Shown in pieces: positions 137-61,850 of a DNA stretch of 64,000 nt. How positions within the stretch are numbered: position 1 is the first letter of the stretch; the number at the start of each line of letters is the position of its first letter. The translations under genes and the position numbers were made by a program. The stretch is from Alistipes sp. (GTDB taxonomy: Bacteria; Bacteroidota; Bacteroidia; Bacteroidales; Rikenellaceae): positions 1 to 64,000 of the forward strand of contig JAFQHI010000005.1 in the NCBI GenBank assembly GCA_017398045.1, in the 5' to 3' direction. The notes beneath the pieces were generated by a model. That model made no database searches. It was not told where the DNA came from and saw only the letters and a program-made list of their open reading frames with translations.

Positions 137-230
137 ACAAAAAAAAGAGCAAAGAGCCAAGAGCCAAGAGGAAAGAGAAAGCGCAAAAACCCCTTAAGAA
201 ACCTTAAGCACCCTTAAGCACCCTTAAGGA
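137..230. repeat. Purine tract plus 10-bp phased CTTAAG array (array A)
   Basis: A purine-rich tract of AAAGAG/CCAAGAG type at about 139-180 is followed by four copies of CTTAAG that begin at 193, 203, 213 and 223, an exact 10-bp period. The bases between the cores vary. The same combination of purine tract and decamer array recurs at 11578-11753. It lies in the 211-bp space between the partial gene and recQ. Function is unknown. Confidence 0.8.
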
Positions 231-265
231 ACTTTATAAAAGCCCTTCTCGCCCTTCCCGCCTTT

Positions 266-297
266 TTTGTTTCTTAATTCCAAAAATCGTATCTTTG
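266..297 (+). promoter_or_regulatory. Promoter of recQ
   Basis: TTTG at 266-269, 20 bp, then TATCTTTG at 290-297 matches the Bacteroidota primary-sigma consensus. The recQ ATG is only 7 nt beyond the -7 box, which predicts a leaderless or nearly leaderless mRNA. Confidence 0.75.
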
Positions 298-304
298 TCT
301 AACG

Positions 305-2233
305 ATGAGCGAAAAACGACTATACGACACCCTCGAACGCTATTGGGGATACAAGGAGTTTCGCCCGCTGCAAAAGGAGATTATCGACTCCATTTTGGCG
401 GGGCGCGACACGTTGGCCCTGATGCCGACCGGTGGCGGTAAGTCGCTCACCTACCAGCTCCCGACGCTCATGCGCGAGGGGTTGTGCATCGTCGTTACGC
501 CCCTCATTGCCCTGATGAAGGACCAGGTGGATAACCTCCGCCGACGGGGTATTCAGGCCGTAGCCATCCACTCCGGCCTATCACACAGCGAGATAGACCG
601 CCTGCTCGACAATTGCGTCTATGGCACCGTAAAATTCCTCTACATTGCCCCCGAGCGTATCGACACGGAGCTGTTTCTGATGCGCGTTGCAAAGATGAAT
701 CTTTCGCTCATTGCCGTCGATGAGGCGCACTGCATCTCACAATGGGGCTACGATTTCCGCCCCTCCTACCTCCACATTGCCGAATTGCGTCGCGCCCAAC
801 CCGATGTGCCGATTTTGGCACTCACGGCCTCGGCCACCGAGCTGGTGACGCGCGACATCATGGAGAACCTCCGCTTCCCCGCCCCCAACCTGATGCGCAG
901 CTCGTTCCTACGCCCCAACCTCTCGTACAGCGTCCGCCACACGGAGGACAAAGAGGGGCAACTCCTGCGCCTGATTCACAACGTCCCCGGCACGGGCATC
1001 GTCTATGTACGCAAACGCGAAACGACCGAGAAGTTAGCCGAATGGTTGCGCTCGGAGGGTATCACGGCCGAGGCCTACCACGGCGGATTGGCCCATGCCG
1101 AGCGGTCGATACGCCAAGAGGAGTGGATTGAAAATCGCGTGCGCGTGATGGTCGCCACCAACGCCTTTGGCATGGGCATCGACAAGCCCGATGTGCGATT
1201 CGTGGTTCACTACACGATGTGCGACTCGCTCGAGAGCTACTACCAAGAGGCGGGGCGTGCCGGACGCGACGGGAAACGCGCCTACGCACTGCTGCTTGTC
1301 GCCCCCGACGATTCGCAACGCCTGACCACCCGTTTCGCACAGGAGTTTCCGCCGCTGGAGCAGGTCAAAGAGCTGTACGACCAACTCTGCTCCTACCTCC
1401 AGGTCGCCATCGGTGAGGGCAAGGGGCAATCGTTTCTGTTCAACCTCTTCGATTTCTGCGCCCGCTACCACCACTACGAGGGGAAGGTGAAGTGCGCCCT
1501 GAAGCTCCTGCAACTCAACGGCTACCTGACGCTGACCGACGTCCAGGAGAACCCCTCGCGGCTGATGTTCACCGTCCGCCGCGACGACCTCTACCGCCTG
1601 CGGCTCAACCGCGAGGAGCTGGACCCCTTTATTCGCGTGCTGCTGCGTCTCTATTCGGGCATCTTCCAGGATTTCAAGCCCATCGACGAGCGCGAAATCG
1701 CCACCTGGAGCGGCTACACCGTAGAGCGTGTCCACCAATTTTTACAGACGCTGTGGCGGTTGCGCGTGATTCGCTACATCCCCTCTGCTCGCGCCCCGAT
1801 GCTCTACCTGCACGAGGAACGACTGCCGAAAAGCGACCTCTACATCGCTCCCGAGACCTACCTCCGTCGCCGCGAACTGATGGAGGAGCGGTTCGAACAG
1901 ATGGACCTCTACGCCCAGAACGAGGAGGAGTGCCGTAGTTCGGTCCTCGACCGCTACTTTGGTGCGGGGAGCGCACACCGTTGCGGCATCTGCGACATCT
2001 GCCTGAAACACAAGCGCGAAGAGAAGGCACGACAAGGCTTTCGGCAACAGGACGAGGAGGCCCTGCGTCACGAGGTGCTACGCCTGATAGGCGAACAACC
2101 CCTCGACCCGCGGGCATTGGTGCTTCAGCTGCACGGCTCGCCCGAACGGCTATCCGAGTTGCTTCGGGCGATGCAAAGCGAGGGGCTGATTCACCTCTCG
2201 GCCGAAGGTCTGCTGAAAATTAGCCGCCCATAG
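305..2233 (+). CDS. recQ: ATP-dependent DNA helicase, RecQ family
   Basis: A 642-residue superfamily 2 helicase. Walker A is MPTGGGKS near residue 40, the motif II region reads DEAHCISQWGYDFRP near residue 140, and motif VI is QEAGRAGRDG near residue 317. The RecQ zinc-binding region is visible as a Cys cluster (C...CGICDIC) near residues 545-567, followed by a short winged-helix-like tail. There is no C-terminal HRDC domain. RecQ enzymes unwind 3'-5' in recombination repair and replication-fork processing. The ATG at 305 fits the start of RecQ homologues and the upstream promoter. It is followed after 51 bp by an RNase D-like exonuclease gene with its own -7 box. Confidence 0.95.
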   Translation: MSEKRLYDTLERYWGYKEFRPLQKEIIDSILAGRDTLALMPTGGGKSLTYQLPTLMREGLCIVVTPLIALMKDQVDNLRRRGIQAVAIHSGLSHSEIDRLLDNCVYGTVKFLYIAPERIDTELFLMRVAKMNLSLIAVDEAHCISQWGYDFRPSYLHIAELRRAQPDVPILALTASATELVTRDIMENLRFPAPNLMRSSFLRPNLSYSVRHTEDKEGQLLRLIHNVPGTGIVYVRKRETTEKLAEWLRSEGITAEAYHGGLAHAERSIRQEEWIENRVRVMVATNAFGMGIDKPDVRFVVHYTMCDSLESYYQEAGRAGRDGKRAYALLLVAPDDSQRLTTRFAQEFPPLEQVKELYDQLCSYLQVAIGEGKGQSFLFNLFDFCARYHHYEGKVKCALKLLQLNGYLTLTDVQENPSRLMFTVRRDDLYRLRLNREELDPFIRVLLRLYSGIFQDFKPIDEREIATWSGYTVERVHQFLQTLWRLRVIRYIPSARAPMLYLHEERLPKSDLYIAPETYLRRRELMEERFEQMDLYAQNEEECRSSVLDRYFGAGSAHRCGICDICLKHKREEKARQGFRQQDEEALRHEVLRLIGEQPLDPRALVLQLHGSPERLSELLRAMQSEGLIHLSAEGLLKISRP

Positions 2234-2258
2234 TCGCCCTTTTCCCGATTTTATTGCG

Positions 2259-2266
2259 TACCTTTG
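2259..2266 (+). promoter_or_regulatory. -7 promoter box for the exonuclease/methyltransferase pair
   Basis: TACCTTTG lies 18 nt before the ATG at 2285 and matches TAnnTTTG. I see no convincing -33 TTTG at the right distance, so the call rests on the -7 box and its position. Confidence 0.5.
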
Positions 2267-2284
2267 TCGCGTTATCGAGCAACC

Positions 2285-2881
2285 ATGGAACAGGAACACT
2301 TTCTCCATAAGATAGACAACGAGCAGACGGCTCAACTGCCGGCCATCGAATTTCGGGGCGAGATACGCATCATCGACCGCGAAGAGTTGGTCGAGGAGGC
2401 CTGCCGCGACTTGGCCGCCTCGCCTATCATCGGATTCGACACCGAGACCCGTCCTTCGTTCAAGGCGGGGGTCAGCTATCGCGTATCGCTCCTGCAACTC
2501 TCGACCAAGAGTCGTTGTTACCTCTTCCGCCTCAACAAGATTGCCCTTTCGAAGCCCATCCTGCGGCTGTTGGAGAATCCCCTTCTTCCGAAAATCGGTG
2601 CCGACGTGGCGGGCGATTTACGCTCCCTGCGCGCCTTGCGCCATTTCCGCGACGGAGGATTCATCGACCTGCAAACCATCGCATCGGAGTGGGGCATCGA
2701 GGAGAAGAGCCTCAGAAAACTCTCGGCCATCGTCCTCGGTCGTCGCGTCTCGAAGGCGCAACGCCTGAGCAATTGGGAGGGTTCGACCCTCACGGACAAA
2801 CAGCAGCTCTACGCCGCTACCGATGCCTGGGTCTGCATCCGCATCTATGAAAAGTTGCTCCACACGCCGAAAATAAAATAG
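2285..2881 (+). CDS. 3'-5' exonuclease, RNase D-type DEDDy domain
   Basis: A 198-residue protein made of a single DEDD exonuclease domain. Motif I is GFDTETRP, motif II is in KIGADVAGDL, and motif III is YAATDAW with the tyrosine of the DEDDy subgroup. It lacks the HRDC domains of full RNase D, so it is the short, stand-alone form found in Bacteroidota. It probably trims structured RNA or DNA 3' ends, but the substrate cannot be read from the sequence. I use the ATG at 2285 because the only in-frame start further upstream is a TTG inside the -7 box. The rRNA methyltransferase gene begins 7 bp after the stop, so the two are probably one transcript. Confidence 0.88.
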   Translation: MEQEHFLHKIDNEQTAQLPAIEFRGEIRIIDREELVEEACRDLAASPIIGFDTETRPSFKAGVSYRVSLLQLSTKSRCYLFRLNKIALSKPILRLLENPLLPKIGADVAGDLRSLRALRHFRDGGFIDLQTIASEWGIEEKSLRKLSAIVLGRRVSKAQRLSNWEGSTLTDKQQLYAATDAWVCIRIYEKLLHTPKIK

Positions 2882-2888
2882 ACTGTAC

Positions 2889-4088
2889 ATGATACCGCAA
2901 GTTGTTCTACGCCGTGGCAAGGAGGAGTCTCTCCTGCGCCGTCACCCCTGGATTTTCTCGGGTGCCATCGACCATATCAAAGCCGAAAAAGAGGAGCAGA
3001 TACGCGAAGGCGCGTTGGTCGAGGTCTATACCCGTAGCGGGGAGTTTATCGCCCAAGGTCACTACCAAATCGGCTCGATTGCCGTGCGTGTACTCTCCTT
3101 CGAAAAGGAGGAGATTGACCAAACGTGGTGGAATAACCGCATTGCCATAGCCTACGACGTGCGTCGCACGTTGGGCCTTACGGATTGCGCAGATACGACC
3201 TGCTACCGTCTCATCCATGGCGAGGGTGACTCGTTGCCGGGGCTGGTGGTCGATATCTACGCCTCGACAGCCGTCGTGCAGTGCCACTCGGTGGGTATGT
3301 ACCGCTCGCGCCAACTCATTGCCGAGGCCATTCGCGCCACCTTTGGCGAGCGCATCACGGCCATCTACGACAAATCCTCGCAGACGCTCCCCTACAAAGC
3401 CGACCTCGGAGCCGTGGATGGCTATTTGTGGGGCAGCTCCGAGCAGCCCTCGCAGGTCGTCTTGGAGCATGGCTTGCAGTTTGCCGTGAATTGGGAGGAG
3501 GGGCAAAAGACCGGTTTCTTCCTCGACCAACGAGAGAACCGCGAATTGGTAAAACGCTACGCCAAGGGGCGCACCGTACTGAACACCTTCTGCTACACGG
3601 GCGGTTTCTCGGTCTATGCGGCCGAGGGTGGTGCCGTAGAGGTCTGCTCGGTCGATTCGTCGGAGCGTGCCGTACATCTGGCTGCCGAGAATATGCGCCT
3701 GAACTTTGGCGACAAGATTCCCCACTCGGAGGTGGCAGCCGATGCCGTAGAGTATCTGCGCAACATCGGTTCGAAGTATGACCTGATTATTCTCGACCCG
3801 CCCGCCTTTGCCAAGCACCACAAGGTCCTCGGCAACGCCATGCAGGGCTACAAGCGACTCAACGCCCGCGCCATTTCGCAAATCAAGCCGGGCGGTATTC
3901 TCTTCACCTTCTCCTGCTCGCAGGCCGTCTCGAAGGAGCTGTTCCGCACGACGGTCTTTTCGGCTGCCGCCATCGCAGGCCGCAAGGTGAGAATCCTCCA
4001 CCAGCTCACCCAGCCCGCCGACCACCCGATTAACATCTACCACCCCGAGGGCGAGTATTTGAAGGGATTGGTACTCTACGTTGAGTAG
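2889..4088 (+). CDS. Class I rRNA large subunit methyltransferase, RlmI-like
   Basis: A 399-residue SAM-dependent methyltransferase. The N-terminal ~80 residues form a PUA-type RNA-binding domain (RHPWIFSGAI). The Rossmann methyltransferase has the SAM motif NTFCYTGGFSVYAA near residue 217 and the catalytic-loop motif ILDPPAFAK near residue 305. RlmI-family enzymes make 5-methylcytosine in 23S rRNA, and the sequence order and length fit. The exact target base is inferred. The gene is 7 bp downstream of the exonuclease gene. Its stop is followed almost at once by a heptamer array and a hairpin shared with the convergent yidC gene. Confidence 0.9.
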   Translation: MIPQVVLRRGKEESLLRRHPWIFSGAIDHIKAEKEEQIREGALVEVYTRSGEFIAQGHYQIGSIAVRVLSFEKEEIDQTWWNNRIAIAYDVRRTLGLTDCADTTCYRLIHGEGDSLPGLVVDIYASTAVVQCHSVGMYRSRQLIAEAIRATFGERITAIYDKSSQTLPYKADLGAVDGYLWGSSEQPSQVVLEHGLQFAVNWEEGQKTGFFLDQRENRELVKRYAKGRTVLNTFCYTGGFSVYAAEGGAVEVCSVDSSERAVHLAAENMRLNFGDKIPHSEVAADAVEYLRNIGSKYDLIILDPPAFAKHHKVLGNAMQGYKRLNARAISQIKPGGILFTFSCSQAVSKELFRTTVFSAAAIAGRKVRILHQLTQPADHPINIYHPEGEYLKGLVLYVE

Positions 4089-4095
4089 AATTGAA

Positions 4096-4145
<50 letters not shown>

Positions 4146-4165
4146 GTTTTTTCGTGCTTTTATCC

Positions 4166-4224
4166 GCTCAACAAAAAAAATGGGAGATAGCCTGAACCGT
4201 TGGCTATCTCCCTTTTTGTTGAGC
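4166..4224. terminator. Bidirectional terminator hairpin between convergent genes
   Basis: The imperfect palindrome starts GCTCAAC and ends GTTGAGC. Its core stem is GGGAGATAGCC (4182-4192) paired with GGCTATCTCCC (4202-4212). A and T runs flank the core, giving a U-tract in either direction, for the + strand methyltransferase and for yidC on the - strand. A near-copy sits at 32258-32316. Confidence 0.8.
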
Positions 4225-4249
4225 TAACTCTCAACTTTCAACTCGGAAC

Positions 4250-6202
4250 TTACTTGCGCTGTTTCTGTTGCATCTCCTGCATACGCATAAGCTCCTCGTA
4301 ACGCTGCTGGAACTTCGACTTCTTGCCCTTCGACTTCTTGGCGGCATTGGCCTCCATAGCCAGGCGAATCTTGTCGTCATCGACCATGCGACGCACGATG
4401 TAGGTCTGGGCGATGGTCAAGAGGTTCGACAGCAGGTAGTAGTAGCAAAGACCGCTGGCGTAGCTGTTGAACCAGAAGACGAGCATGAGGGGCATCATAT
4501 AGACCATCATAAACTTCATACCCGGCATCTGGGGCTGCGACGAGGCTGTCTGCTTGTAGTTGATGTAGGAGAAGGCGAAGGTCGATGCAGCCATCAAGAG
4601 CGTGAAGAGCGACACATGGTCCCCATAGAAGGGAATCGAGAAGGGCAGGTTCAACACGCTGTCGTACGACGAGAGGTCGTGCGCCCAGAGGAACGACTCG
4701 CCACGCAACTCAATCGAAGCGGGGAAGAAGCGGAACATCGCAATCAGAATCGGCATCTGAATCAGCATCGGAATACAACCGCCCATGGGGTTGATACCCG
4801 CCTTCTTGTACAGCTCCATCGTCGCCTGCTGACGCTTCATGGCATCCTCCTGCTTGGGATACTTCGCAGCCAACGCATCCATCTCGGGCTTCACCAGACG
4901 CATCTTGGCCATCGAGACGTAGCTCTTATAGGTCAAAGGCGAGATGATAAGGCGAATCAGCACGGCCAGAATCAGGATAATGATACCGAACGAGGCGATG
5001 TGGTTGCGCAACAGGTCAAAGACCGGAATCACAAACCAACGGTTAATCCAACCGAAGATACCCCAACCCAACGGAATCACACGCTCCAGGCAGAGGTCGT
5101 CGTCCTCCGTTACGCTCACCTTACGCAACACCGAATAGCGGTTCGGGCCGAAATAGAGGGCCATATCGTACCCCTCGGTGGTCGAATTGTAACCGAGCGA
5201 GGACTGCAACATATACTCCTTCATATAACCCGACCCCTCTTCGGCCGTATCGAAGGCCATCTCGGCACCCTGCAACCCTGCGGGGACAATCAGCACCGAA
5301 GAGAAGAACTGCTGTTTGAAATCGACCCAATCCAGCTCGGTCGAGGTGTCGTCATCCTTGAAACCCTCGCTCATACCCAGCTCCTCAATCGAATCCTCTC
5401 CCACGTGGTGGTAGGCAATCGTCGTGTAGAGGTTCTCGTTCGTGAAGCCACGCTCGTTCTGGTAGCTCTTGCTCGACCACTCTACCCCAATCGAAGTCTG
5501 GTTCGAGAGGAAGGGCGACATACCATTCAGGCGCACGTCGAAATCGACAAGGTAGTCGCGCTCGGGCGTGGCCGAATTATATATAAGGTAACTATACGCG
5601 AGGTTGGCACCCGGGGCCACCGGCAACTGCATCGTCACACGCTGCACACCCTCGGCATCGCGCTCCACGGCCACCTTTTGGAAGGTGTAGTCGGACGTCT
5701 GAATCTTCAGGTCGTTGAAGCCGCGACGCACGAAGAACGAGAGGTTGAAACGCTCAAATTCGGGGTCGAACAGCTGCACCGGCTCCGTGCGCTCATCGCG
5801 CGGGCCATACTTCGTGTACTCCTTCAACTCCACGGCCTTCACCTGACCACCACGGGTCGAGAAGGTGAGCTTCATCACCTCATTCTCAACCGTAAACTCC
5901 TCGGCCTCGGCCACCTCGGCGGCAGCCAACTCTGCGCCCAGCATCTCTACGCGGCGGGCATACGCGCTTTCGGCTTCGTTCATCGGAGCATCGGTCAGCT
6001 CGGCAACCGAATCGCCTGCGGTGGCTACAGCCGTCGTATCGACCACCACCTCGGGCATCGTTGCGGCCTTCACCGAATCCTGGTAGGCATTATAAATTGC
6101 CAGCTCCTCCTGATAACGCTTCTGCTCCTTGCCGTTGAGGTAGGCAAAGCCTACAAAGACCAACGCCAGGACGACAAAGCCTAAAAGTGTCTTCTTATCC
6201 AT
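4250..6202 (-). CDS. yidC: Membrane protein insertase YidC
   Basis: A 650-residue Oxa1/YidC/Alb3 family insertase of the Gram-negative type. An N-terminal membrane anchor is followed by a large periplasmic domain (about residues 60-370) and a C-terminal five-helix insertase core (about 390-610) with the cytosolic segment SMAKMRLVKPEMDALAAKYP. The lysine-rich tail (KKSKGKKSKFQQRYEEL) is typical. YidC inserts and folds inner-membrane proteins with or without SecYEG. It lies 48 bp downstream of the DUF349 gene on the same strand, a pairing I take as one operon. It ends facing the rRNA methyltransferase gene with a shared terminator. Confidence 0.97.
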   Translation of the reverse strand: MDKKTLLGFVVLALVFVGFAYLNGKEQKRYQEELAIYNAYQDSVKAATMPEVVVDTTAVATAGDSVAELTDAPMNEAESAYARRVEMLGAELAAAEVAEAEEFTVENEVMKLTFSTRGGQVKAVELKEYTKYGPRDERTEPVQLFDPEFERFNLSFFVRRGFNDLKIQTSDYTFQKVAVERDAEGVQRVTMQLPVAPGANLAYSYLIYNSATPERDYLVDFDVRLNGMSPFLSNQTSIGVEWSSKSYQNERGFTNENLYTTIAYHHVGEDSIEELGMSEGFKDDDTSTELDWVDFKQQFFSSVLIVPAGLQGAEMAFDTAEEGSGYMKEYMLQSSLGYNSTTEGYDMALYFGPNRYSVLRKVSVTEDDDLCLERVIPLGWGIFGWINRWFVIPVFDLLRNHIASFGIIILILAVLIRLIISPLTYKSYVSMAKMRLVKPEMDALAAKYPKQEDAMKRQQATMELYKKAGINPMGGCIPMLIQMPILIAMFRFFPASIELRGESFLWAHDLSSYDSVLNLPFSIPFYGDHVSLFTLLMAASTFAFSYINYKQTASSQPQMPGMKFMMVYMMPLMLVFWFNSYASGLCYYYLLSNLLTIAQTYIVRRMVDDDKIRLAMEANAAKKSKGKKSKFQQRYEELMRMQEMQQKQRK

Positions 6203-6250
6203 CTTACTGTTACTTACTGCAAACTCTGTTTAGCGGTTAAACTTCCCTTA

Positions 6251-8206: not shown

Positions 8207-8306
8207 GTTCGTAACAGCCCCTCGAAGGGGCGTGATTTTAAGTGGTTAAAGGTTTTAGGAACATCACATACGCGACGCGCACCCACGCGCGAACGCATAA
8301 TTGCGA

Positions 8307-8314
8307 CAAATATA
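8307..8314 (-). promoter_or_regulatory. -7 box for the DUF349-yidC operon
   Basis: On the - strand this reads TATATTTG, about 100 nt before the DUF349 start codon. A TTTG further upstream (8331-8334) is 16 bp away instead of 19-20, so the -33 element is uncertain. Confidence 0.5.
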
Positions 8315-8358
8315 GCGAAAATTCCCTATCCAAAGAAAGCTTTTTCGCCATTTTTTTG

Positions 8359-9092: not shown

Positions 9093-9110
9093 GGCAAGTT
9101 GAAAAAAAGG

Positions 9111-9230
9111 AGATTAAAGGAAACTAAAGGCGACTAAGGAAATCTTGGTCGCTTTTTTTTAATCACCCTTAATTTCCTTTAGTAACCCTTAGCACCCTTT
9201 AGCATCCTTTAGTAACCTTTAGCAGCCCTT
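9111..9230. repeat. Palindromic 10-bp phased array (array B)
   Basis: Three units ending in CTAAAGG/CTAAGGA with 10-bp spacing (9111-9140) are followed by seven units of the opposite orientation, AGnAnCCTTT-like, also at exactly 10-bp spacing (9161-9230). The third left-arm unit forms one side of the response-regulator terminator. It occupies most of the 288-bp gap before ackA. Confidence 0.85.
9130..9160 (+). terminator. Intrinsic terminator of the response regulator
   Basis: GCGACTAAG (9130-9138) pairs with CTTGGTCGC (9144-9152) with one G-U pair around a GAAAT loop. Eight T residues follow (9153-9160). Confidence 0.85.
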
Positions 9231-9252
9231 CACCGCCCCTCAAACCCTCCCA

Positions 9253-11519: not shown

Positions 11520-11544
11520 TCACGAAAAGCAGCGCAACAAAAAC

Positions 11545-11575
11545 ATGGAGTGGTTTCGGCCACTCCATTTTTTTT
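11545..11575 (+). terminator. Terminator of the ackA operon
   Basis: ATGGAGTGG (11545-11553) pairs with CCACTCCAT (11560-11568) around a TTTCGG loop, followed by a run of T to 11575. Confidence 0.9.
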
Positions 11576-11577
11576 GT

Positions 11578-11753
11578 AAGAGGAAAGAGGAGAGAGCGAA
11601 GAGCAAAGAGGAAAGAGGAAAGGGGAAAAAGGTGATTAAGGGTGATTAAGGGAGATTAAGGTTTTTGGAAGTAACCTTAAGGCACCTTAAGTAACTTTAA
11701 GTAACCTTAAGAAACCTTACCCCCTCTCTTCGCTCTCGCCTCTCTCCTCTTGG
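11578..11753. repeat. Nested palindrome with 10-bp phased arrays (array C)
   Basis: The outer layer is a purine-rich arm (11578-11630, AGAGGAAAGAG type) mirrored by a pyrimidine-rich arm (about 11719-11753). The inner layer is three GGnGATTAAG units at 10-bp spacing (11631-11660) opposed by CCTTAAG/CTTTAAG units, also at 10-bp spacing (about 11673-11719). It fills the gap between the convergent ackA operon and the GNAT gene. Confidence 0.85.
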
Positions 11754-11759
11754 ATGATG

Positions 11760-16045: not shown

Positions 16046-16052
16046 ATGGTAA

Positions 16053-16087
16053 ATTCAAAATTTAGAATTTAGAATTCAAAATTAATT
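16053..16087. repeat. AT-rich heptamer array upstream of rlmB
   Basis: The units ATTCAAA, ATTTAGA, ATTTAGA, ATTCAAA and ATTAATT are in strict 7-bp register. The first four match the array at 15185-15212. The remaining ~165 bp to the ABC-F stop codon shows no gene, only a C-run near 16121. Confidence 0.85.
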
Positions 16088-16253
16088 AAGAGAAGAGCCA
16101 ACATGTTACATGCCTCTCACCCCCCCCCATTTTTTGATTTTAGGCGAGCAGATTTTGCCTCGACCGCAGTTCGGTTCAAATGGGCTGTACATGAGGTACT
16201 GCCCATTCGGGCCGGACAAGGAGAGGTGAAATATGCCGCATAAAATCGGAAAA

Positions 16254-28583: not shown

Positions 28584-28600
28584 GAGGGGGAAATAACAAA

Positions 28601-28690
28601 GTGCCTTAAAGTTGCTTAAAGTTGCTTAAGGAATTGGCATTTCACCCTCTCCCTTAAGTTACCTTAAGGCACTTTAAGGCACTTTTTACG
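28601..28690. repeat. Palindromic 10-bp phased array (array D)
   Basis: Three units at 10-bp spacing (GTGCCTTAAA, GTTGCTTAAA, GTTGCTTAAG; 28601-28630) are mirrored by CCTTAAGTTA, CCTTAAGGCA and CTTTAAGGCA (28652-28681) across a ~21-bp loop. It lies between two convergent genes and may act as a terminator for both, although long T-runs are absent. Confidence 0.88.
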
Positions 28691-32244: not shown

Positions 32245-32255
32245 GAGTTGAAAGT
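32225..32255. repeat. Heptamer array AGTTGAA (left arm)
   Basis: Units AGTTGAA, AGTTGAA, AATTGAG and AGTTGAA in 7-bp register start inside the last codons of the glycosyltransferase gene. They are mirrored by CTTTCAA/CTCTCAA units at 32339-32368. Confidence 0.85.
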
Positions 32256-32257
32256 TA

Positions 32258-32316
32258 GCTCAACAAAAAGGGAGATAGCCACCGGTTTGACTATCTCCCA
32301 TATTTTTTTGTTGAGC
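32258..32316. terminator. Bidirectional hairpin, near-copy of the one at 4166-4224
   Basis: It starts GCTCAAC and ends GTTGAGC, with core GGGAGATAG (32270-32278) paired with CTATCTCCC (32291-32299), flanked by A5 and T7 runs. It serves the glycosyltransferase gene, and possibly acts as a backstop for the sus-like operon. Confidence 0.8.
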
Positions 32317-32338
32317 GGCAGAAAGCACGACAAAAAAA

Positions 32339-32368
32339 CTTTCAACTTTCAACTCTCAACTTTCAACT
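32339..32368. repeat. Heptamer array CTTTCAA (right arm)
   Basis: CTTTCAA, CTTTCAA, CTCTCAA and CTTTCAA in 7-bp register form the inverted counterpart of the array at 32225-32255. Confidence 0.85.
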
Positions 32369-32370
32369 AA

Positions 32371-32408
32371 AAAAAAGGGAGACAGCCACCAATCGGCCGT
32401 CTCCCTTT
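32371..32408 (-). terminator. Terminator of the sus-like operon
   Basis: AAAGGGAGAC (32374-32383) pairs with GTCTCCCTTT (32399-32408), with an inner GCC/GGC. On the - strand it runs into a T-run (the A-run at 32369-32376). It lies 29 bp after the stop codon of the last gene. Confidence 0.85.
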
Positions 32409-32437
32409 CCCATTAACCTTACCAACTATCAATTTAT

Positions 32438-55377: not shown

Positions 55378-55401
55378 ACAAACTCAACCTTTCATCGCTC
55401 C

Positions 55402-56544: not shown

Positions 56545-56572
56545 GCCGCTTTTCACCTTACTTTATACGATA

Positions 56573-56606
56573 AGAGCCTTCTTGTTTGCAGGAAGGTTCT
56601 TTTTTT
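56573..56606 (+). terminator. Terminator after the esterase gene, interleaved with the trkH promoter
   Basis: AGAGCCTTC (56573-56581) pairs with GAAGGTTCT (56592-56600) with one G-U pair, followed by six T (56601-56606). The 10-nt loop contains the -33 TTTG of trkH. Confidence 0.85.
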
Positions 56607-56615
56607 GTATCTTTG
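56585..56615 (+). promoter_or_regulatory. Promoter of trkH
   Basis: TTTG (56585-56588), 19 bp, TATCTTTG (56608-56615), a full consensus match, 24 nt before the ATG at 56640. The -33 lies in the loop of the esterase terminator. Confidence 0.85.
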
Positions 56616-56639
56616 TCCTTGTCTCCAACCAACACCACG

Positions 56640-58466
56640 ATGAAACACTTTTCCTGGAAGCCGCTGTGGCCCTCTACGCAGACCCAACGTCGCATCCGTT
56701 TTTGGGTGCAGACGCTCTCGTTTATCGTCTCGGTGGTGGTGCTGGGAGCCTTGTTTATCGATTACGGCTACACGTTGAAGCCCCACGAGACGGAATATGT
56801 CCATGCCATCTACCACTTCGGCAAACTCTTTTACCTGATTCTCTTCTCGGCCACACTGCTGTTGCAGGTGCGTCGGCTGCGACGCAAGGCTATCCTTATG
56901 ACCCTTATCACGGGGTTGGCACTCTACTCGCTCATGCTCCCCCATTGGTTCCCCCTCTCATCGGCCGAAAGTCCGCTTCGGGGGCTGTGGCACCTGTTCG
57001 AGAACACCTATTACGTCGGGGCCATCCTTGGGCTGTTTGCCACCATGGAGCTTTCGCGGGCCGTGGTCAATTTCATCAACAAACGCACGAATCCCGCCCT
57101 GATGCTGGCCGCAGGATTTGCCGTCATCATTGCAATCGGCACCCTGCTGCTGCTCGTTCCGCGCTCCACCCTGCCCCACATCCACCTCTCGGTGGTCGAT
57201 GCCCTCTTTGTGGCCACTTCGTCGGTCTGCGTCACGGGACTTTCGCCCGTTGAATTGGCCACCACCTTCACCCTCGAAGGGCAGACCGTCATCCTGCTCC
57301 TGATTCAAATCGGAGGGTTAGGCGTGATGACCATCACGAGCTTTTTCGCCCTCTTTTTCATGGGCAACACGGGCCTTTACAACCAATTTGCCCTGCGTGA
57401 TATGCTCTCCTCGGAGACCTTCTCGTCGCTCGTCTCGGCCCTGCTCTACATCCTGGGCTTCACCTTCGTTATCGAGCTGTGCGGGGCGGCTCTGATTTGG
57501 CACAGCATCCACGGCACGCTCGGCTACTCGCTCCATGAAGAGCTGTATTTTTCGCTCTTTCATGCCGTTTCGGCCTTCTGCAATGCCGGCTTCTCGACCC
57601 TCGAAGGAAATCTGGGCAATGAGCTGATTCTCACCGCCCACAACGGATTCTACCTCTGGATTTCGCTCCTTATCGTCCTGGGCGGTATCGGATTTCCGAT
57701 TCTGGTCAATTTCAAAAACATCCTCTTCTACCACCTCCGCATGGCGGCCTACCGCCTCCTCGGCGTGGGACAGAAGCCGATACGCTACCGCCACCTGACG
57801 AACATCAACACGAAAATCGTCCTCTTCATCACCGCCCTGCTGCTGGTCGGCGGCACCCTCTGGGTAGGCTGCCTGGAGTGGAACGGAGCCTTCCACGGCA
57901 TGACTACGGGCGAGAAGCTGACCCAATCGCTCTTCAATGCCGTAGCCCCGCGAACGGCCGGATTCAACAGCGTGGACCTGCGCGAATTTTCGTTTATGAC
58001 CCTGCTCGGCTACCTCTTCTTGATGTGGGTCGGTGGTGGTTCACAGTCCACGGCGGGTGGTCTGAAGGTCAACACGCTCGGTGTGGCGTGGGCCAACTTC
58101 CTCTCCGTGATACGCGGACGCGAACGGGTCACCCTCTTCGGCCGCGAGATTCCGGCCGAATCGGTACGCCGCGCCTCGGCCACCATCTTTGCCTCGATGA
58201 GCGCGATACTCACGGCCTTCGTGCTGCTCGTCGCCATCGAACCTTCGATTCACCCCACGCGACTGCTGTTCGAGACCATCTCGGCCCTCTCGACCGTCGG
58301 GTCGTCGTTGGGCGTAACCCCCGAATTGGGCGAGGCGGGCAAACTCATCCTGACGGGGTTGATGTTCATGGGTCGTGTCGGCCTGATTACCGTGCTGATG
58401 AGCCTCCTGCCTGCACGTCCCGCCCCCAAATATCGCCTCCCGAAAGACAACGTAATCATCAACTAA
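56640..58466 (+). CDS. trkH: TrkH-type potassium uptake protein
   Basis: A 608-residue Trk/Ktr channel subunit. About 150 N-terminal residues with extra membrane helices precede the four-fold channel repeat. The four pore-loop motifs are visible as SSVCVTGLS, HAVSAFCNAGFST, VAPRTAGFNS and ALSTVGSSLGV. K+ enters through this subunit, gated by a TrkA-type nucleotide-binding protein, whose gene follows 13 bp later. I start at the ATG at 56640 because it lies downstream of the promoter; the longer frame would begin inside the terminator hairpin. Confidence 0.95.
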   Translation: MKHFSWKPLWPSTQTQRRIRFWVQTLSFIVSVVVLGALFIDYGYTLKPHETEYVHAIYHFGKLFYLILFSATLLLQVRRLRRKAILMTLITGLALYSLMLPHWFPLSSAESPLRGLWHLFENTYYVGAILGLFATMELSRAVVNFINKRTNPALMLAAGFAVIIAIGTLLLLVPRSTLPHIHLSVVDALFVATSSVCVTGLSPVELATTFTLEGQTVILLLIQIGGLGVMTITSFFALFFMGNTGLYNQFALRDMLSSETFSSLVSALLYILGFTFVIELCGAALIWHSIHGTLGYSLHEELYFSLFHAVSAFCNAGFSTLEGNLGNELILTAHNGFYLWISLLIVLGGIGFPILVNFKNILFYHLRMAAYRLLGVGQKPIRYRHLTNINTKIVLFITALLLVGGTLWVGCLEWNGAFHGMTTGEKLTQSLFNAVAPRTAGFNSVDLREFSFMTLLGYLFLMWVGGGSQSTAGGLKVNTLGVAWANFLSVIRGRERVTLFGREIPAESVRRASATIFASMSAILTAFVLLVAIEPSIHPTRLLFETISALSTVGSSLGVTPELGEAGKLILTGLMFMGRVGLITVLMSLLPARPAPKYRLPKDNVIIN

Positions 58467-58479
58467 CACCCTTATAGGT

Positions 58480-58899
58480 ATGAAATATTTAGTCATTGGA
58501 TTGGGTAACTTCGGCAAAACGCTGGCCGAGGAGCTGACCGAGCAAGGCAACGATGTGATTGGCATCGACCTGAACGAACACCGCATCGAAGAGGTCAAAA
58601 ATCGCATTGCGGTGGCCTATATCCTCGATGCCACCGAGAAGGCGGCCCTCAAGGCCCTTCCGTTGGACGATATCGACTGCGCCATCGTGGCCATCGGCCA
58701 GAGCATGGATGCTTCGCTGCGTGCCGTGGCGGCACTCAAAGAGCTGGGTGTAAGACAGATTTATGCCCGCGCCCTCGACGCAACGCACCAATCCATCCTT
58801 GCCGCCATGTCGATTCGTCGCATCTTCATTCCCGAGAGCTATGCGGCCCGCGCCTTTGCCCGCAAACTCGGCAACAACGAAGAGGCCGAATTGTTATAA
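58480..58899 (+). CDS. TrkA/KtrA N-domain protein lacking the C-terminal RCK_C domain
   Basis: A 139-residue Rossmann NAD(H)/ATP-binding protein that gates TrkH. It opens VIGLGNFGKTLAEELTEQG (glycine-rich GxGxxG), with the acidic ribose-binding residue in GIDLNEHR, and ends GNNEEAELL. Typical KtrA/TrkA proteins are ~220 residues or more and carry a TrkA-C ligand domain, which is absent here. No coding continuation is visible in the ~110 bp after the stop. It may be a natural short form or a truncation. Confidence 0.9.
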   Translation: MKYLVIGLGNFGKTLAEELTEQGNDVIGIDLNEHRIEEVKNRIAVAYILDATEKAALKALPLDDIDCAIVAIGQSMDASLRAVAALKELGVRQIYARALDATHQSILAAMSIRRIFIPESYAARAFARKLGNNEEAELL

Positions 58900-58951
58900 C
58901 GCCCGCCTAAAAATTTATGCCGTGAGCGGCTCGTTGCGCCGAATTTTTCAC

Positions 58952-58959
58952 TATCTTTG
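58952..58959 (+). promoter_or_regulatory. -7 box of purC
   Basis: TATCTTTG, 51 nt upstream of the purC ATG. A TTG at 58934 is only 15 bp away, so the -33 is uncertain. Confidence 0.55.
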
Positions 58960-59010
58960 CGCGGCAACAGTCCCCAAAAAAGAACAATCAAACAAAAACA
59001 AGATACCCAA

Positions 59011-59955
59011 ATGGAAGCTATCGTAAAGACCAATTTCAACCTGCCGGGTCAGCAGGACCACTATGTAGGTAAGGTGCGTGATGTCTATTCAATCGAGGGC
59101 GACTACCTCGTGATGGTCGTTTCGGACCGCATCTCGGCCTTTGATGTTGTACTGCCGAAGGGCATCCCCTTCAAGGGTCAGGTATTGAACCAAATCGCAG
59201 CCAAATTTCTCGATGCCACGTCGGATATTCTGCCCAACTGGAAGATTGCCGTACCCGACCCGATGGTAACCGTAGGCCATAAGTGCGAGCCGTTCAAGGT
59301 CGAAATGGTGATTCGCGGCTACCTCTCGGGCCACGCATGGCGCGAGTATAAGGCCGGCAAGCGCACCATCTGCGGTGTCGAAATGCCCGAGGGCATGGTC
59401 GAGAACCAGAAGTTCCCCACCCCGATTATCACCCCGACGACGAAGGCTGCCGAGGGTCACGACGAGGATATCTCGAAGGAGGAGATTATCGCCCAGGGTA
59501 TCGTGAGCCGCGAGGATTACGAGCAGTTGGAGGCCTACACGCGCGCCATCTTCAAGCGCGGTACGGAGATTGCCGCCAAGATGGGGCTGATTCTGGTCGA
59601 TACGAAGTATGAGTTCGGCAAGAAGAACGGCGTGATTTACCTCATGGACGAGATTCACACCCCCGATTCGTCGCGCTATTTCTACGCCGAGGGCTACGAG
59701 GAGCGTCTGGCAAAGGGCGAGAAGCAGAAGCAGCTCTCGAAGGAGTTCGTGCGCGAGTGGCTGATGGCCAACGGTTTCCAGGGTCTGGAGGGCCAGCAGG
59801 TCCCCGAAATGACCCCCGAGATTGTTGAGAGCATCACCGACCGCTACATCGAGTTGTATGAAAACATCACGGGCGAGAAGTTCATGAAGGCCGAGGGTGA
59901 CAACATCGAGGAGCGCATCGAGAAGAATGTCACCGAGTGGCTCAACAAGCTCTAA
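59011..59955 (+). CDS. purC: Phosphoribosylaminoimidazole-succinocarboxamide synthase
   Basis: A 314-residue SAICAR synthase of de novo purine synthesis, joining CAIR and aspartate with ATP. Motifs are [49 protein letters not shown], and [14 protein letters not shown]. Length fits the Bacteroidota/eukaryote-like form (~310) instead of the shorter ~240-residue type. I place the start at the ATG at 59011, since an upstream in-frame start would add an out-of-family segment. It ends with a strong terminator. Confidence 0.97.
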
Positions 59956-59978
59956 ATCCGCACAAACGCAACCAGTTG

Positions 59979-60010
59979 AAAAGCCACTCCAACAATGGGG
60001 TGGCTTTTTT
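59979..60010 (+). terminator. Terminator of purC
   Basis: AAAAGCCACTCC (59979-59990) pairs with GGGGTGGCTTTT (59997-60008) around AACAAT, then T-run to 60010. It ends 9 nt before the next ATG. Confidence 0.9.
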
Positions 60011-60019
60011 GAACGCACC

Positions 60020-61018
60020 ATGAACCGCCACGACCTTTTCAAACGCGCCATCGCCCTCTTTCGAGCCGGCACGGAACACGACCGCGAGGCCGTTTCCTTG
60101 CTGCATCGGGCCATGTGCGGTTTTCAGGTACACCCCGCCATACCCGCTTGGATAGGTTGGGCGCACAAGAACGGGCGCGGTGTACCGAAAGATGCTTACA
60201 CCGCGCTGATGTGGTATCGCAGGGCGGTGAAAGCACTACGCTACAACGACCCGAACGAGGCGTGGATTAAGGAGCGCGTACAACGCCTCGAGGCGCAGAA
60301 TCCGCAGCCGCAACCCACCCCTAACGAGGTGCATGAGTGGGGATTGGGGCGCGTGAAAATCAAACGGGGCAAGCAGTACGGCTACCGCCTGCACGACACA
60401 TACGCCGAAGTTACGCTCACCGAGGTGCCGATGTACGATGAGGCCCTCGTTCGCCTATGGAAACTACTCGAAGAGCGCGAAGCGAGGCGCGAAAAGGACC
60501 TTTTACCCGCCCTCCTGGATGAAAACCTCAAGCGCGACTACCCCCTCTTCGAACTCCGCATCGAGCGCGGTCGCGGAGAGCAGTTCAGCCACCGCAAGGA
60601 GGGTATCCGCTACACGCTTATCACACCCCACGCCACCCGCTTCGAGGAGCGCATCACGCGCGAAGCAATCATCCGCCACGGCTTGCGCCTGATGAAGATG
60701 GCGGCCGAGGAGTATCTTCCCAAGCGGCTGAAGGAGCTGTCGGAGCGCGTCGGACTCGGCTACGCGCATTGCCACATCTCACACGGAAACAAAACACTCG
60801 GAAGCTTCTACTATAAAAGCAAAGATATCGACCTCTCCTATCACCTCCTAAAACGCACACCAATTCAGGTTGATGCAGTCATCATCCACGAGTTGTGCCA
60901 CGGGGTCGAGTTCAACCACTACAACGAATTTCATTACACCATGGAGCGATACGGAGGTGCGGCAATTGCTCATGCCGACCGCCACCTCTACGACCACCAC
61001 GTCCCGACCGAGATTTAA
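60020..61018 (+). CDS. YgjP-like M48 metallopeptidase domain protein with Sel1-like N-terminus
   Basis: A 332-residue protein. The N-terminal ~95 residues resemble a Sel1/TPR-like repeat (GWAHKNGRGVPKDAYTALMWYRRA). The C-terminal half is a YgjP/DUF45 metalloprotein with zinc motif HELCH in IIHELCHGVEFNHYNEFH and preceding GSFYYKSKDIDLSYHLL. Function of the family is unknown. It is a paralogue in type of the 183-residue protein at 14632-15183. I choose the ATG at 60020; the open frame continues upstream into purC but no better start is evident. There is no separate promoter visible, so it may rely on read-through of the purC terminator. Confidence 0.8.
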   Translation: MNRHDLFKRAIALFRAGTEHDREAVSLLHRAMCGFQVHPAIPAWIGWAHKNGRGVPKDAYTALMWYRRAVKALRYNDPNEAWIKERVQRLEAQNPQPQPTPNEVHEWGLGRVKIKRGKQYGYRLHDTYAEVTLTEVPMYDEALVRLWKLLEEREARREKDLLPALLDENLKRDYPLFELRIERGRGEQFSHRKEGIRYTLITPHATRFEERITREAIIRHGLRLMKMAAEEYLPKRLKELSERVGLGYAHCHISHGNKTLGSFYYKSKDIDLSYHLLKRTPIQVDAVIIHELCHGVEFNHYNEFHYTMERYGGAAIAHADRHLYDHHVPTEI

Positions 61019-61151
61019 GGGCCTCGCAACCAATGTATATCCGGGCGCATCGAGGAATAATTGAATAAAAAGAACGAAAAAGCGGAGCAAGATTTTGTTT
61101 TTTCAAAATTCGTTTCTATCTTTGCCATCCCGATTCAACGATTATCGGCCT

Positions 61152-61235
61152 GCCCGGATGGCGGAATCGGTAGACGCGTTGGTCTCAAACACCAATGTCA
61201 GCAATGACGTGCCGGTTCGACCCCGGCTCCGGGTA
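61152..61235 (+). tRNA. tRNA-Leu (anticodon CAA)
   Basis: An 84-nt class II tRNA. The acceptor GCCCGGA (61152-61158) pairs with TCCGGGT (61228-61234) with a G-U end. The anticodon arm TTGGT-CTCAAAC-ACCAA places CAA at positions 34-36. A long variable arm follows, and the T-arm is GCCGG-TTCGACC-CCGGC (61211-61227). The discriminator is A at 61235. CCA is not encoded. A terminator hairpin begins 4 nt later. Confidence 0.95.
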
Positions 61236-61271
61236 CGAAAGAGAGAAACTTTGGTTTCTCTCTTTTTTTGT
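61216..61271. repeat. Direct repeat copy 1: tRNA-Leu 3' end plus terminator
   Basis: These 56 bases (T-loop, acceptor 3' strand, terminator stem-loop and T-run) are identical to 61514-61569, 298 bp downstream. The arrangement resembles attL/attR of an element integrated at a tRNA 3' end. Confidence 0.9.
61240..61269 (+). terminator. Terminator of tRNA-Leu
   Basis: AGAGAGAAAC (61240-61249) pairs with GTTTCTCTCT (61254-61263) around TTTG, followed by a T-run. Confidence 0.9.
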
Positions 61272-61306
61272 ATTTTATGGTCGTTGGCGAGGGACTTCGT
61301 CCTCCC

Positions 61307-61362
61307 GCTGATGTGATTGGCTTCTTATGCGTGCAAGCCCGCCAGACGCCAATCACATCAGC
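61307..61362. repeat. 15-bp perfect inverted repeat
   Basis: GCTGATGTGATTGGC (61307-61321) and its exact complement GCCAATCACATCAGC (61348-61362) are separated by 26 bp. A 9-bp inverted repeat GCGCGGACA/TGTCCGCGC also lies at about 61435-61494. No gene is seen between 61236 and 61961. Confidence 0.85.
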
Positions 61363-61513
61363 GTTTGCCTACGGCAAGCTCGCCACATCCGAACTAATTC
61401 GCAAAGTCGCGGCACTCACTCAATAAGGCGGTTGCGCGGACATATAACCTTGATTGCTCGACCTTCGGTCTGCGCTTGATGGTGTCCGCGCGAGTTCGCA
61501 ACAAGTTGCGACC

Positions 61514-61569
61514 TTCGACCCCGGCTCCGGGTACGAAAGAGAGAAACTTTGGTTTCTCTCTTTTTTTGT
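61514..61569. repeat. Direct repeat copy 2 of the tRNA-Leu 3' end and terminator
   Basis: Perfect 56-bp copy of 61216-61271, not preceded by the rest of a tRNA. Its first part CGACCCCGGCTCCGG (61516-61530) is also perfectly complementary to 61572-61586, so the terminator is enclosed in a further 15-bp stem. Confidence 0.9.
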
Positions 61570-61627
61570 GTCCGGAGCCGGGGTCGCAGCTTCGGTGGCG
61601 TCTCGGCAAACAAACTGTCGCCCATGA

Positions 61628-61740
61628 AATGTGCAGCGTTGCGTTGCAACCACGGGAGATTGTTTGAGCTAAGTTGCTCAAACAAGTTTGGCATCTGACC
61701 TCAAACAATCCCCCTTAAACCTACGGTTTTGCTGCACATT
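61628..61740. repeat. Nested palindrome with mutually exclusive hairpins
   Basis: The outer arms AATGTGCAGC (61628-61637) and GCTGCACATT (61731-61740) are perfect. Inside, GATTGTTTGAG (61658-61668) can pair with CTCAAACAATC (61700-61710). Alternatively TTGTTTGAGC (61660-61669) pairs with GCTCAAACAA (61676-61685). The two pairings exclude each other, as in attenuators or switches. No reading frame of recognisable type overlaps. Confidence 0.7.
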
Positions 61741-61800
61741 CCCCGGGCTATCGTGTCTGCACTCGACTGCTGCGAACCTTCGACACCCGCTGTTTAACCA

Positions 61801-61850
61801 ATAGTCCCTTTAGTTACCTTTAGCAACCTTTAATCACCTTTAGCCCCCAT
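61801..61850. repeat. 10-bp phased CCTTTAG array (array E)
   Basis: Four to five units (ATAGTCCCTT, TAGTTACCTT, TAGCAACCTT, TAATCACCTT, TAGCCCCCAT) in strict 10-bp register. It lies about 35 bp before the AT heptamers of the sulP promoter. Confidence 0.85.

What the first reader, a model, noticed from the sequence alone, without database searches (positions are those of the whole stretch)
137..61850. Family of intergenic arrays with an exact 10-bp repeat period
Five gene-free stretches (190-230, 9111-9230, 11631-11719, 28601-28681, 61801-61850) carry short cores CCTTAAG or CCTTTAG spaced exactly 10 bp apart while the bases between vary. Three of them (9111, 11631, 28601) have a second arm in the opposite orientation, making long phased palindromes. 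Ten-bp spacing puts every core on the same face of the DNA helix. Most sites follow gene ends or lie between convergent genes, and one unit builds the stem of a good terminator (9130-9160). That suggests a role in ending transcription, in DNA bending, or as a binding site for a phased protein. I know of no named element with this description, but I cannot search.
Basis: partly seen in the sequence, partly recalled or inferred. Interest (0 to 1): 0.72.

Follow-up and report, generated by a model that had tools for sequence, protein, structure and literature searches.

The report
Layered palindromic repeats between Alistipes genes
Between its genes this gut bacterium carries many small mirror-image blocks of short DNA repeats, built in a fixed order of layers and with fixed and free letters at set positions; they are real and change quickly between related species, but what makes or keeps them is not known.

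Summary
All five stretches exist and the 10-bp phase is exact: in 248 intergenic regions (61 kb) of this genome CCTTWAG cores lie 10 bp apart 91 times, 0 times at 9 and 3 at 11; 200 resamples gave none at 10. The arrays are genome-wide and confined to a few Alistipes species (7 of 180 genomes; only the own genome among 393 drawn from the order).

They are the inner layer of larger mosaics. Intergenic arrays in this genome have periods 7, 9 or 10 (and 14, twice 7) almost only. Purine-rich arms stand left of pyrimidine-rich arms (54 to 3). Seven-bp arrays lie outside 9/10-bp arrays (24 to 0). The 7-bp core is nearly fixed; the 3-bp spacer is highly variable.

A main role in termination is not supported: terminators are mostly separate and as common without arrays between convergent genes. 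Exact arm pairing is not selected. Orthologous sites gain, lose and swap arrays.

Best reading: fast-turnover non-coding satellite mosaics whose units exchange through the core. Phased protein binding is not excluded. New variant of a known kind.

The parts
124..192 (+). purine-rich 7-bp array (AAAGAGC type), outer layer left of the 10-bp array
192..229 (+). 10-bp array, CCTTAAG core, 4 units, spacers AAA, CAC, CAC; ends 75 bp before a recQ-like gene (305-2233)
4089..4249 (.). dispersed bidirectional terminator cassette between 7-bp AGTTGA arms (purine left, pyrimidine right); same polarity, no 10-bp array
9105..9141 (-). purine arm of 10-bp units, left half of palindrome
9126..9162 (+). intrinsic terminator whose stem is built from one unit of the purine arm; stem and T-run also in G024, G027, G165
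9171..9243 (+). pyrimidine arm, 10-bp units, CCTTTAG/CCCTTAG cores
11545..11568 (.). bidirectional intrinsic terminator after the phosphotransacetylase-like gene, outside the array block; present in G024 and G027, which lack the block
11577..11632 (+). outer left 7-bp purine array (GAGGAAA type)
11630..11661 (-). inner left 10-bp purine arm (GGTGATTAAG)
11669..11719 (+). inner right 10-bp pyrimidine arm (CCTTAAG core)
11720..11751 (-). outer right 7-bp pyrimidine array (complement of the GAGGAAA type)
28595..28631 (-). 10-bp purine arm (TTGCTTAAAG) between convergent genes
28650..28685 (+). 10-bp pyrimidine arm (CCTTAAG core); with the left arm a long hairpin that ends before TTTTT
61807..61844 (+). 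10-bp array, CCTTTAG core, 4 units, no second arm; 118 bp before a sulfate-permease-like gene

Best explanation
The 10-bp arrays are the inner layer of dispersed, layered, palindromic non-coding repeat mosaics (satellite-like elements). Shown here: periods 7/9/10, purine-left/pyrimidine-right polarity, 7-bp arrays outside 9/10-bp arrays, fixed core with variable spacer, nearly always one core type per array, rapid turnover at orthologous sites, patchy families across the genus. Inferred mechanism: units are gained, lost and exchanged by slippage or template switching that needs a match over the 7-bp core. A core mutant drops out of this exchange, so the core stays fixed, while the spacer is free and is either a copy of its neighbour or a draw from a shared pool. 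Whole blocks are sometimes copied to new intergenic sites. The mosaics persist where they do little harm, between genes and near gene ends. No cellular function is required. This mechanism does not by itself explain the fixed polarity and layer order; these are taken as inherited element architecture.
For: In 148 units between two identical cores, core columns differ from the preceding unit in 0-9.5% and spacer columns in 44-49%. Neighbouring exact cores are of one kind in 94 of 94 pairs in the 464-kb G000 sample. Adjacent CCTTTAG spacers are identical in 30 of 90; the other 60 have Hamming distances 16/28/16, the same shape as random pairs between arrays, so they do not look like point-mutated copies. 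Spacer strings are shared between loci above a null: pairs 48 vs 23.7 (reached in 0 of 300 null runs), triples 7 vs 2.4 (8 of 300), quadruples 0. Sites turn over: of 10 aligned G000/G027 regions with a strict array in G000, 4 have one in G027; at C15:198587 G000 and G165 have 10-bp arms, G027 a 9-bp array; at C8:63079 one arm is 9-bp in G000 and 10-bp in G027. A copied block: C16:69617 and C11:8104, 92% over 113 bp. Of 39 array clusters none has its middle in a called gene; one overlaps a predicted start by 2 bp and 4 at piece ends have no flanking pair. Families are patchy across 180 genomes: 10-bp in 7, AGTTGA in 14, AGAGSAA in 10.
Against: Core invariance with scrambled spacers is also what purifying selection on a binding site would give. 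Between G000 and G027 orthologous arrays, matched core columns differ in 2 of 154, spacers in 19 of 48, flanks in 296 of 2256; core slower than flank fits selection, though core columns were picked by near-match and unit shifts can misalign spacers. The CCTTAAG family fits my model less well: 12 of 33 adjacent spacers identical, the rest 10/3/8, and all 10 one-base differences are transitions, which looks like ordinary point mutation. Mixed-core neighbours do exist in G027 (C27:9607) and G165 (C4:18358). Polarity (54 to 3) and layer order (24 to 0) are not predicted by slippage or exchange. Spacer letters are restricted (position 1 pyrimidine in 147 of 155, position 2 never G in 155), which a free spacer would not need. 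Few arrays share spacer order, so block copying explains a minority.
Confidence: 0.45

Rival explanations
1. Phased binding sites: a lineage-specific DNA-binding protein contacts each 7-bp core on one face of the helix and polymerises along the array (nucleoid or domain-boundary role); spacers are free because they are not read.
For: Exact 10-bp phase (91 pairs at lag 10, 0 at 9, 3 at 11); core slower than flank between species (biased as stated); one core type per array (94 of 94); Subirana and Messeguer propose a protein-polymer role for constant-size, variable-sequence repeats in Bacillus (PMC8161180, abstract and passages).
Against: Families with periods 7 and 9 share the same architecture and do not keep helical phase. 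Different families replace one another at the same site. A close relative, G038 (97% identical phosphotransacetylase), has no exact array pair. No candidate protein was sought or found.
Confidence: 0.25
2. Accessory terminators: the pyrimidine arm is a Rho loading site with regularly spaced C residues, or the two arms form a long terminator hairpin; the two-arm form works in both directions.
For: Pyrimidine arms are C-rich and G-poor with C runs every 10 nt; RhoTermPredict uses C>G windows of 78 nt with C every 11-13 nt (PMC6407284, passages). Enriched between convergent genes in G000. One unit forms the stem at 9126-9156; the arms at 28601-28690 fold (z -6.5) and end before TTTTT. In tandem regions terminators are somewhat commoner with arrays (11 of 17 against 34 of 82).
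Against: Intrinsic terminators are present in 11 of 12 array-bearing convergent regions and in 16 of 18 without; strict array units make the terminator in 1 of 29 array-bearing regions. Purine-then-pyrimidine order also holds in divergent regions (G000 4 RY, 0 YR; G027 3 RY, 1 YR). Single arms occur. No convergent enrichment in G027.
Confidence: 0.1
3. Miniature inverted-repeat transposable elements carrying a minisatellite, moved by a transposase acting in trans, like BrickBuilt of Porphyromonas.
For: Site-specific presence or absence against relatives; near-copies at distant loci; inverted arms; BrickBuilt precedent in Bacteroidales (PMC4596501, abstract).
Against: No common ends or target-site duplication seen by eye at the two insertion-like sites compared (11520 and C15:177318). 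Most arrays do not share spacer order. A Y1 (IS200/REP-type) transposase was found in 0 of 8 genomes; other transposase families were not searched.
Confidence: 0.12
4. Selected RNA or DNA hairpins: the arms exist to pair with each other exactly.
For: Two-arm elements of the window fold better than shuffles (28601-28690 z -6.5; 11625-11719 z -3.1; 9105-9230 z -3.0).
Against: Arm-swap test on 24 two-arm elements (16 G000, 8 G027): native -34.5, swapped -34.9 kcal/mol on average, Wilcoxon P = 0.34. Arms may use different core types, for example C15:183386.
Confidence: 0.04
5. Ordinary minisatellites: head-to-tail slippage from one seed plus random point mutation.
For: Adjacent spacers are identical more often than chance (30 of 90 and 12 of 33). 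One-base differences in the CCTTAAG family are all transitions (10 of 10). Of 17 non-Alistipes records with the pattern, 14 have the same spacer in the matched units, as plain slippage gives.
Against: In the CCTTTAG family differing neighbours look like random draws, and differences avoid the core. Polarity and layering are unexplained.
Confidence: 0.05

Closest known systems
GGGNATC heptamer repeats of Xanthomonas and Nostoc (Rehm et al. 2015, PMC4692102; abstract, introduction and passages read)
   Same: Short-period tandem arrays dispersed between genes, under-represented in genes and between divergent genes; in Xanthomonas 70 and 75 pairs in convergent orientation forming inverted repeats.
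   Different: A 7-bp G-quadruplex-type unit; no 10-bp unit with a 7-bp core and 3-bp free spacer and no layered 7/9/10 order in the parts read.
TAACTGA heptamer repeats of Beggiatoaceae, Cyanobacteria and five Bacteroidetes (MacGregor 2015, PMC4679880; abstract and Bacteroidetes section read)
   Same: Intergenic; some Bacteroidetes examples have mixed heptamer assemblages and relatives with shorter, repeat-free regions at the same place.
   Different: In the Beggiatoaceae genome most sit just upstream of start codons and are proposed as translation sites; in G000 the 10-bp arrays lie nearer gene ends (12 of 14 short tandem regions; not so in G027, 3 of 6).
Constant-size, variable-sequence tandem repeats of Bacillus (Subirana and Messeguer 2021, PMC8161180; abstract and passages read)
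   Same: Fixed unit length with constant and variable parts; several families per species; species-specific.
   Different: Units of 52 or 20-21 nt; the word palindrom- does not occur in the main text.
BrickBuilt MITE of Porphyromonas gingivalis (Klein et al. 2015, PMC4596501; abstract read)
   Same: Intergenic minisatellite with small inverted-repeat ends in a Bacteroidales genome.
   Different: One 23-bp unit, 19 copies in one strain, fixed leader and tail; fixed ends were not found here, by eye at two sites.
STRR heptanucleotide repeats of cyanobacteria (name recalled; the Calothrix case is cited in PMC4692102, introduction)
   Same: Dispersed 7-bp tandem arrays.
   Different: No 10-bp core-plus-spacer layer known to me (recall).

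Membership tests
Dispersed short-period intergenic tandem repeats (heptamer SSR / STRR kind) | head-to-tail units of about 7-10 bp at many intergenic sites, rare in genes | tested here: met
Dispersed short-period intergenic tandem repeats (heptamer SSR / STRR kind) | one uniform unit per array | tested here: not met
   10-bp arrays have a fixed core but differing spacers in 60 of 90 neighbouring CCTTTAG and 21 of 33 CCTTAAG pairs
REP / RAYT system | Y1 transposase gene in the genome | tested here: not met
   PF01797 in 0 of 8 genomes, several of them incomplete; control genomes ring in 5 of 14
MITE | conserved termini and target-site duplication | tested here: inconclusive
   not seen by eye at two insertion-like sites; no systematic search
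MITE | multiple near-identical copies | tested here: inconclusive
   some copies (92% over 113 bp), but spacer order mostly private
Intrinsic terminator | GC-rich hairpin followed by a T-run formed by the repeat itself | tested here: inconclusive
   clear at 9126-9156; possible as a long two-arm hairpin at 28601-28690 though not scored by short-hairpin scans; no structure at 61795-61860 (z 0.8); made of strict units in 1 of 29 array-bearing regions
Rho-dependent terminator | termination requires Rho at a C>G, regularly spaced C region | not testable with these tools
   composition fits; RNA 3' ends are not available; the rho gene was not searched
Phased A-tract curved DNA | A/T runs of 4 or more phased at about 10.5 bp (criterion recalled) | tested here: inconclusive
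   cores CCTTTAG/CCTTAAG hold only TTT or TTAA; curvature was not computed
Known structured RNA | match to an Rfam family at the gathering score | tested here: not met
   only a tRNA in the window

The most novel reading that the evidence does not exclude
An active, lineage-specific process writes and rewrites intergenic repeat mosaics with a built-in grammar: purine arm then pyrimidine arm, 7-bp layers outside 9/10-bp layers, a fixed core, and a restricted set of letters at each free position (YHN in the CCTTTAG family; R in AGTTGA-R and S in AGAG-S-AA, as listed for patterns that allow only these letters). A trans-acting factor, lost in array-poor sister species, would read the core and set the period.
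Probability: 0.14. Interest if true: 0.88.

Novelty: new variant of a known kind. Interest (0 to 1): 0.56.

Why it matters
Bacterial tandem repeats are usually read as slippage products of one unit. Here many arrays keep an exact period and core while the spacer varies, and several repeat families obey one order and one strand polarity. Close relatives have arrays, relics or nothing at the same site, so birth, rewriting and loss can be followed step by step. That makes a bacterial counterpart of satellite-DNA evolution testable, and would expose a hidden binding protein if one exists. For annotators it warns that Alistipes intergenic regions contain repeat mosaics that can look like terminators or regulatory RNAs.

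Tried and rejected
Terminator role: tested by co-occurrence and overlap, not supported as the main role. Hairpin co-variation: arm-swap test negative. RAYT/REP: no Y1 transposase. Known RNA family: none in the window but a tRNA. Transcription-coupled (R-loop) origin of the polarity: it would predict the opposite order in divergent regions, where RY still prevails (7 to 1). Stop-codon traps in all frames: the 10-bp cores carry TAG/TAA, but the AGAGSAA family has none, so dropped (reasoning on sequence). Recent copying as the main source of arrays: only a modest excess of shared spacer strings. Assembly artefact: arrays occur in several separately assembled species with different spacers. Viral origin: 5 viral contigs match the pattern; they were not inspected.

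Literature: 8 searches, two of them with Alistipes as a term. Among the titles and abstract starts listed I saw no description of these 10-bp arrays; most searches list only the best 6-15 of the papers found, and the library holds open-licence PMC papers only, so absence is weak evidence.

Results against or limiting my reading. G027 shows no convergent enrichment, and its tandem arrays no preference for the upstream gene end (3 of 6, against 12 of 14 in G000, where 3 of 17 regions of 700 bp or more were dropped). Sampling was not blind: C15 was taken (first 340 kb whole) after one search had listed arrays on it; the C16 pieces, L117 and the other pieces of G000 (200 kb) and most of the G027 pieces were chosen around known arrays. 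Searches use window + C15 + C16 pieces; searches use the same kind of material with L117 added; searches use all enriched material. Gene calls are my own simple codon-usage caller. Other genomes show other periods in small samples: G015 6, 8 and 13, G203 12, G165 and G169 15. Segments that were neither purine- nor pyrimidine-rich are left out of the 54 to 3 count (18 of 77 neighbour pairs in G000, 5 of 30 in G027). Of the three YR cases one lies between two tandem copies of an element, one spans an uncalled gene and one is next to a terminator. with family labels gave 61 RY and 1 YR within 60 bp. Two regions with a 10-bp array outside a 7-bp array but more than 60 bp away (G000 C8:41545, G027 L124) are not in the layer matrix, and part of the AT-rich 7-bp type near gene starts may be promoter sequence. 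The periodicity table used too broad an ORF mask and was replaced. In one search the reversed control equals the pattern and is uninformative. In one search one G027 region was cut to its first 400 bp before alignment.

Full report
What was checked. The window lies in an unnamed 2.36 Mb, 56-contig genome (G000). Relatives in the same genus are named Alistipes in public records: contig lengths identify G027 as RGIG8565 from water deer, G165 as RGIG7716 from water buffalo and G169 as RGIG8642; G020 is RGIG7325 by identical match places. So the genus is Alistipes, by inference.

In the window the exact core pairs at 10 bp number 8, with 0 in 200 resamples. In 464 kb (window plus the stretches) CCTTTAG pairs number 61 at 10 bp, 1 at 9, 2 at 11. 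In 248 intergenic regions of such material CCTTWAG pairs number 91 at lag 10, 62 at 20, 35 at 30, and 0 to 5 at every other lag from 7 to 29. Genome-wide the three-core pattern matches 82 and 103 times on the two strands; the reversed control 0 and 0.

Where it occurs. Strict pattern: 7 of 180 genomes of the genus (G000 82, G027 55, G165 28, four others 1-2) and, of 393 genomes drawn from the order, only the own one. By phosphotransacetylase identity, in 151 genomes of the genus, the close clade is G024 98, G027 98, G008 97, G038 97, G020 96, G165 95%. Two-core pattern in nine genomes: G000 263, G027 129, G165 53, G008 15, G020 12, G024 3, G038 0, G140 0, G161 0. So very close species differ up to about a hundredfold. 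In the public GTDB-based collection 49 stretches matched: 32 from Alistipes records and 17 from others (records of or near the own genome may be left out there). Of the 17, 14 have the same spacer in the matched units, two (L185, L189) differ at one base, and one, L186 in a sheep Kiritimatiellae bin, has Alistipes-type variable spacers and both arms.

Anatomy. In intergenic DNA of G000, arrays of period 7, 9, 10 and 14 cover 36.7, 12.6, 48.9 and 19.5 bp per kb; all other periods from 5 to 16 are at 0-0.8 (enriched material). The 7-bp families are AGTTGA-R, AGAG-S-AA and AT-rich AATT types; the 9-bp families GAGATTAAA, AAGGGCG and others; the 10-bp families CCTTTAG-NNN and CCTTAAG-NNN. Opposite-polarity neighbours are purine-left, pyrimidine-right 39 to 1 in G000 and 15 to 2 in G027, in convergent, tandem and divergent regions alike. 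In six genomes, among same-arm neighbours within 60 bp, 7-bp arrays lie outside 9/10-bp arrays 24 times and inside 0 times; the 10-bp and one 9-bp family are 3 to 3.

Core and spacer. In 148 units flanked by two identical cores, core columns differ from the preceding unit in 1, 14, 2, 0, 3, 0 and 8 cases and spacer columns in 73, 65 and 66. Neighbouring exact cores are of one kind in 94 of 94 pairs of the G000 sample; single mixed pairs were seen in G027 and G165. Identical adjacent spacers are in excess (30 of 90 in CCTTTAG, 12 of 33 in CCTTAAG). In CCTTTAG the rest are distributed like random pairs; in CCTTAAG 10 of the 21 others differ by one base, all transitions. Between species, matched cores differ at 2 of 154, spacers at 19 of 48, flanks at 296 of 2256 columns, with the biases noted.

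Sites in related genomes. At 11520-11759 G000 has a terminator plus a nested 7-10-10-7 block, where G024 and G027 have a 64- and 62-bp spacer with the terminator alone; the same locus in G008 and G165 shows no array either. At C15:177318 G000 has a block of about 150 bp with its own terminator that G027 lacks. At 9093 and C15:200371 arrays are shared with G027, with relics in G024 and G165. At C15:198587 and C8:63079 the array family differs between species. Strict arrays in aligned regions: G027 both 4, G000 only 6, G027 only 0 of 63; G024 0, 4, 0 of 47; G020 0, 5, 0 of 47; G038 0, 3, 0 of 25; G165 0, 3, 0 of 9; G008 none in 2.

Position. Of 39 array clusters none has its middle in a called gene; one overlaps a predicted start by 2 bp and four at piece ends have no flanking pair. 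In G000 12 of 36 convergent, 17 of 163 tandem and 1 of 36 divergent regions hold an exact pair. Of 14 tandem ones under 700 bp, 12 lie in the half next to the upstream stop. G027 shows neither trend, with small numbers.

Function tests. In regions of 100 bp or more, an intrinsic terminator is found in 11 of 12 convergent regions with arrays and 16 of 18 without, and in 11 of 17 tandem regions with arrays and 34 of 82 without; in the 29 array regions it overlaps strict array units in one. In G027 it is 1 of 1 and 5 of 5, and 2 of 6 and 11 of 30. Exceptions in the window are the unit-built stem at 9126-9156 and the long two-arm hairpin at 28601-28690 that ends before TTTTT. Two-arm elements can fold, but swapping arms among 24 elements leaves the energy unchanged. 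No Y1 transposase in 8 genomes. No Rfam match in the window but a tRNA.

Judgement. The closest published relatives I found are the heptamer arrays of Xanthomonas/Nostoc and Beggiatoaceae, the constant-size repeats of Bacillus and the BrickBuilt MITE. Core-plus-spacer units, the 7/9/10 layer order and strict polarity across families were not in the parts of those papers that I read. I file it as a new variant of a known kind. The mechanism offered (core-dependent unit exchange, tolerated in non-coding DNA) explains core, spacer, period and turnover, but not polarity and layering, so confidence is under one half and a phased binding protein is the main rival.

Noticed in passing
window 4089-4249 and 32245-32437; also G000 C15:33137, C15:133017, C15:337534 and G024: A dispersed bidirectional terminator cassette (GCTCAACAAAAA - GGGAGATAGCC...GGCTATCTCCC - TTTTTGTTGAGC) between AGTTGA arms, 84-90% identical between G000 copies; at 32245 the G024 copy is in the opposite orientation (by eye).
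   Followed up: partly
G000 C15:259284, C15:302940, C16:62790, C16:114960 region and window 16046-16253: A second dispersed palindromic element of about 125 bp (GATTTTATAGGGCATATTTGCAC ... AAATCTGCTCCTCTAAAATC), often beside 10-bp arrays; MITE-like.
   Followed up: no
G000 C15:229015, C15:274028, C15:307766, C16:69464: A third dispersed unit (TTTAACCCACCTTCGGTGGCTTGACTTTGCTCCGGCTCGGCATCACGCAAGCGTG...) next to AGAG arrays.
   Followed up: no
L186 7400-7640 (Kiritimatiellae bin RGIG6350, sheep rectum): An Alistipes-type two-arm 10-bp element with variable spacers in the last 430 bp of a contig whose rplB is only 54% identical to that of G000: horizontal transfer or a chimeric contig end.
   Followed up: partly
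G169 C25 (L149, L209, L210): A distant Alistipes has the 10-bp units behind a similar leader (GTAGACTTTA) at several places, all 11 matches in one orientation, 9 of them on one 148-kb contig: a more MITE- or cassette-like form.
   Followed up: partly
G159: The reversed control pattern matched 9 times in this one genome, so another 10-bp array with a different core probably exists there.
   Followed up: no
G000 C16:39120-39500: At least three tandem copies of a whole two-arm element (about 155-bp period).
   Followed up: no
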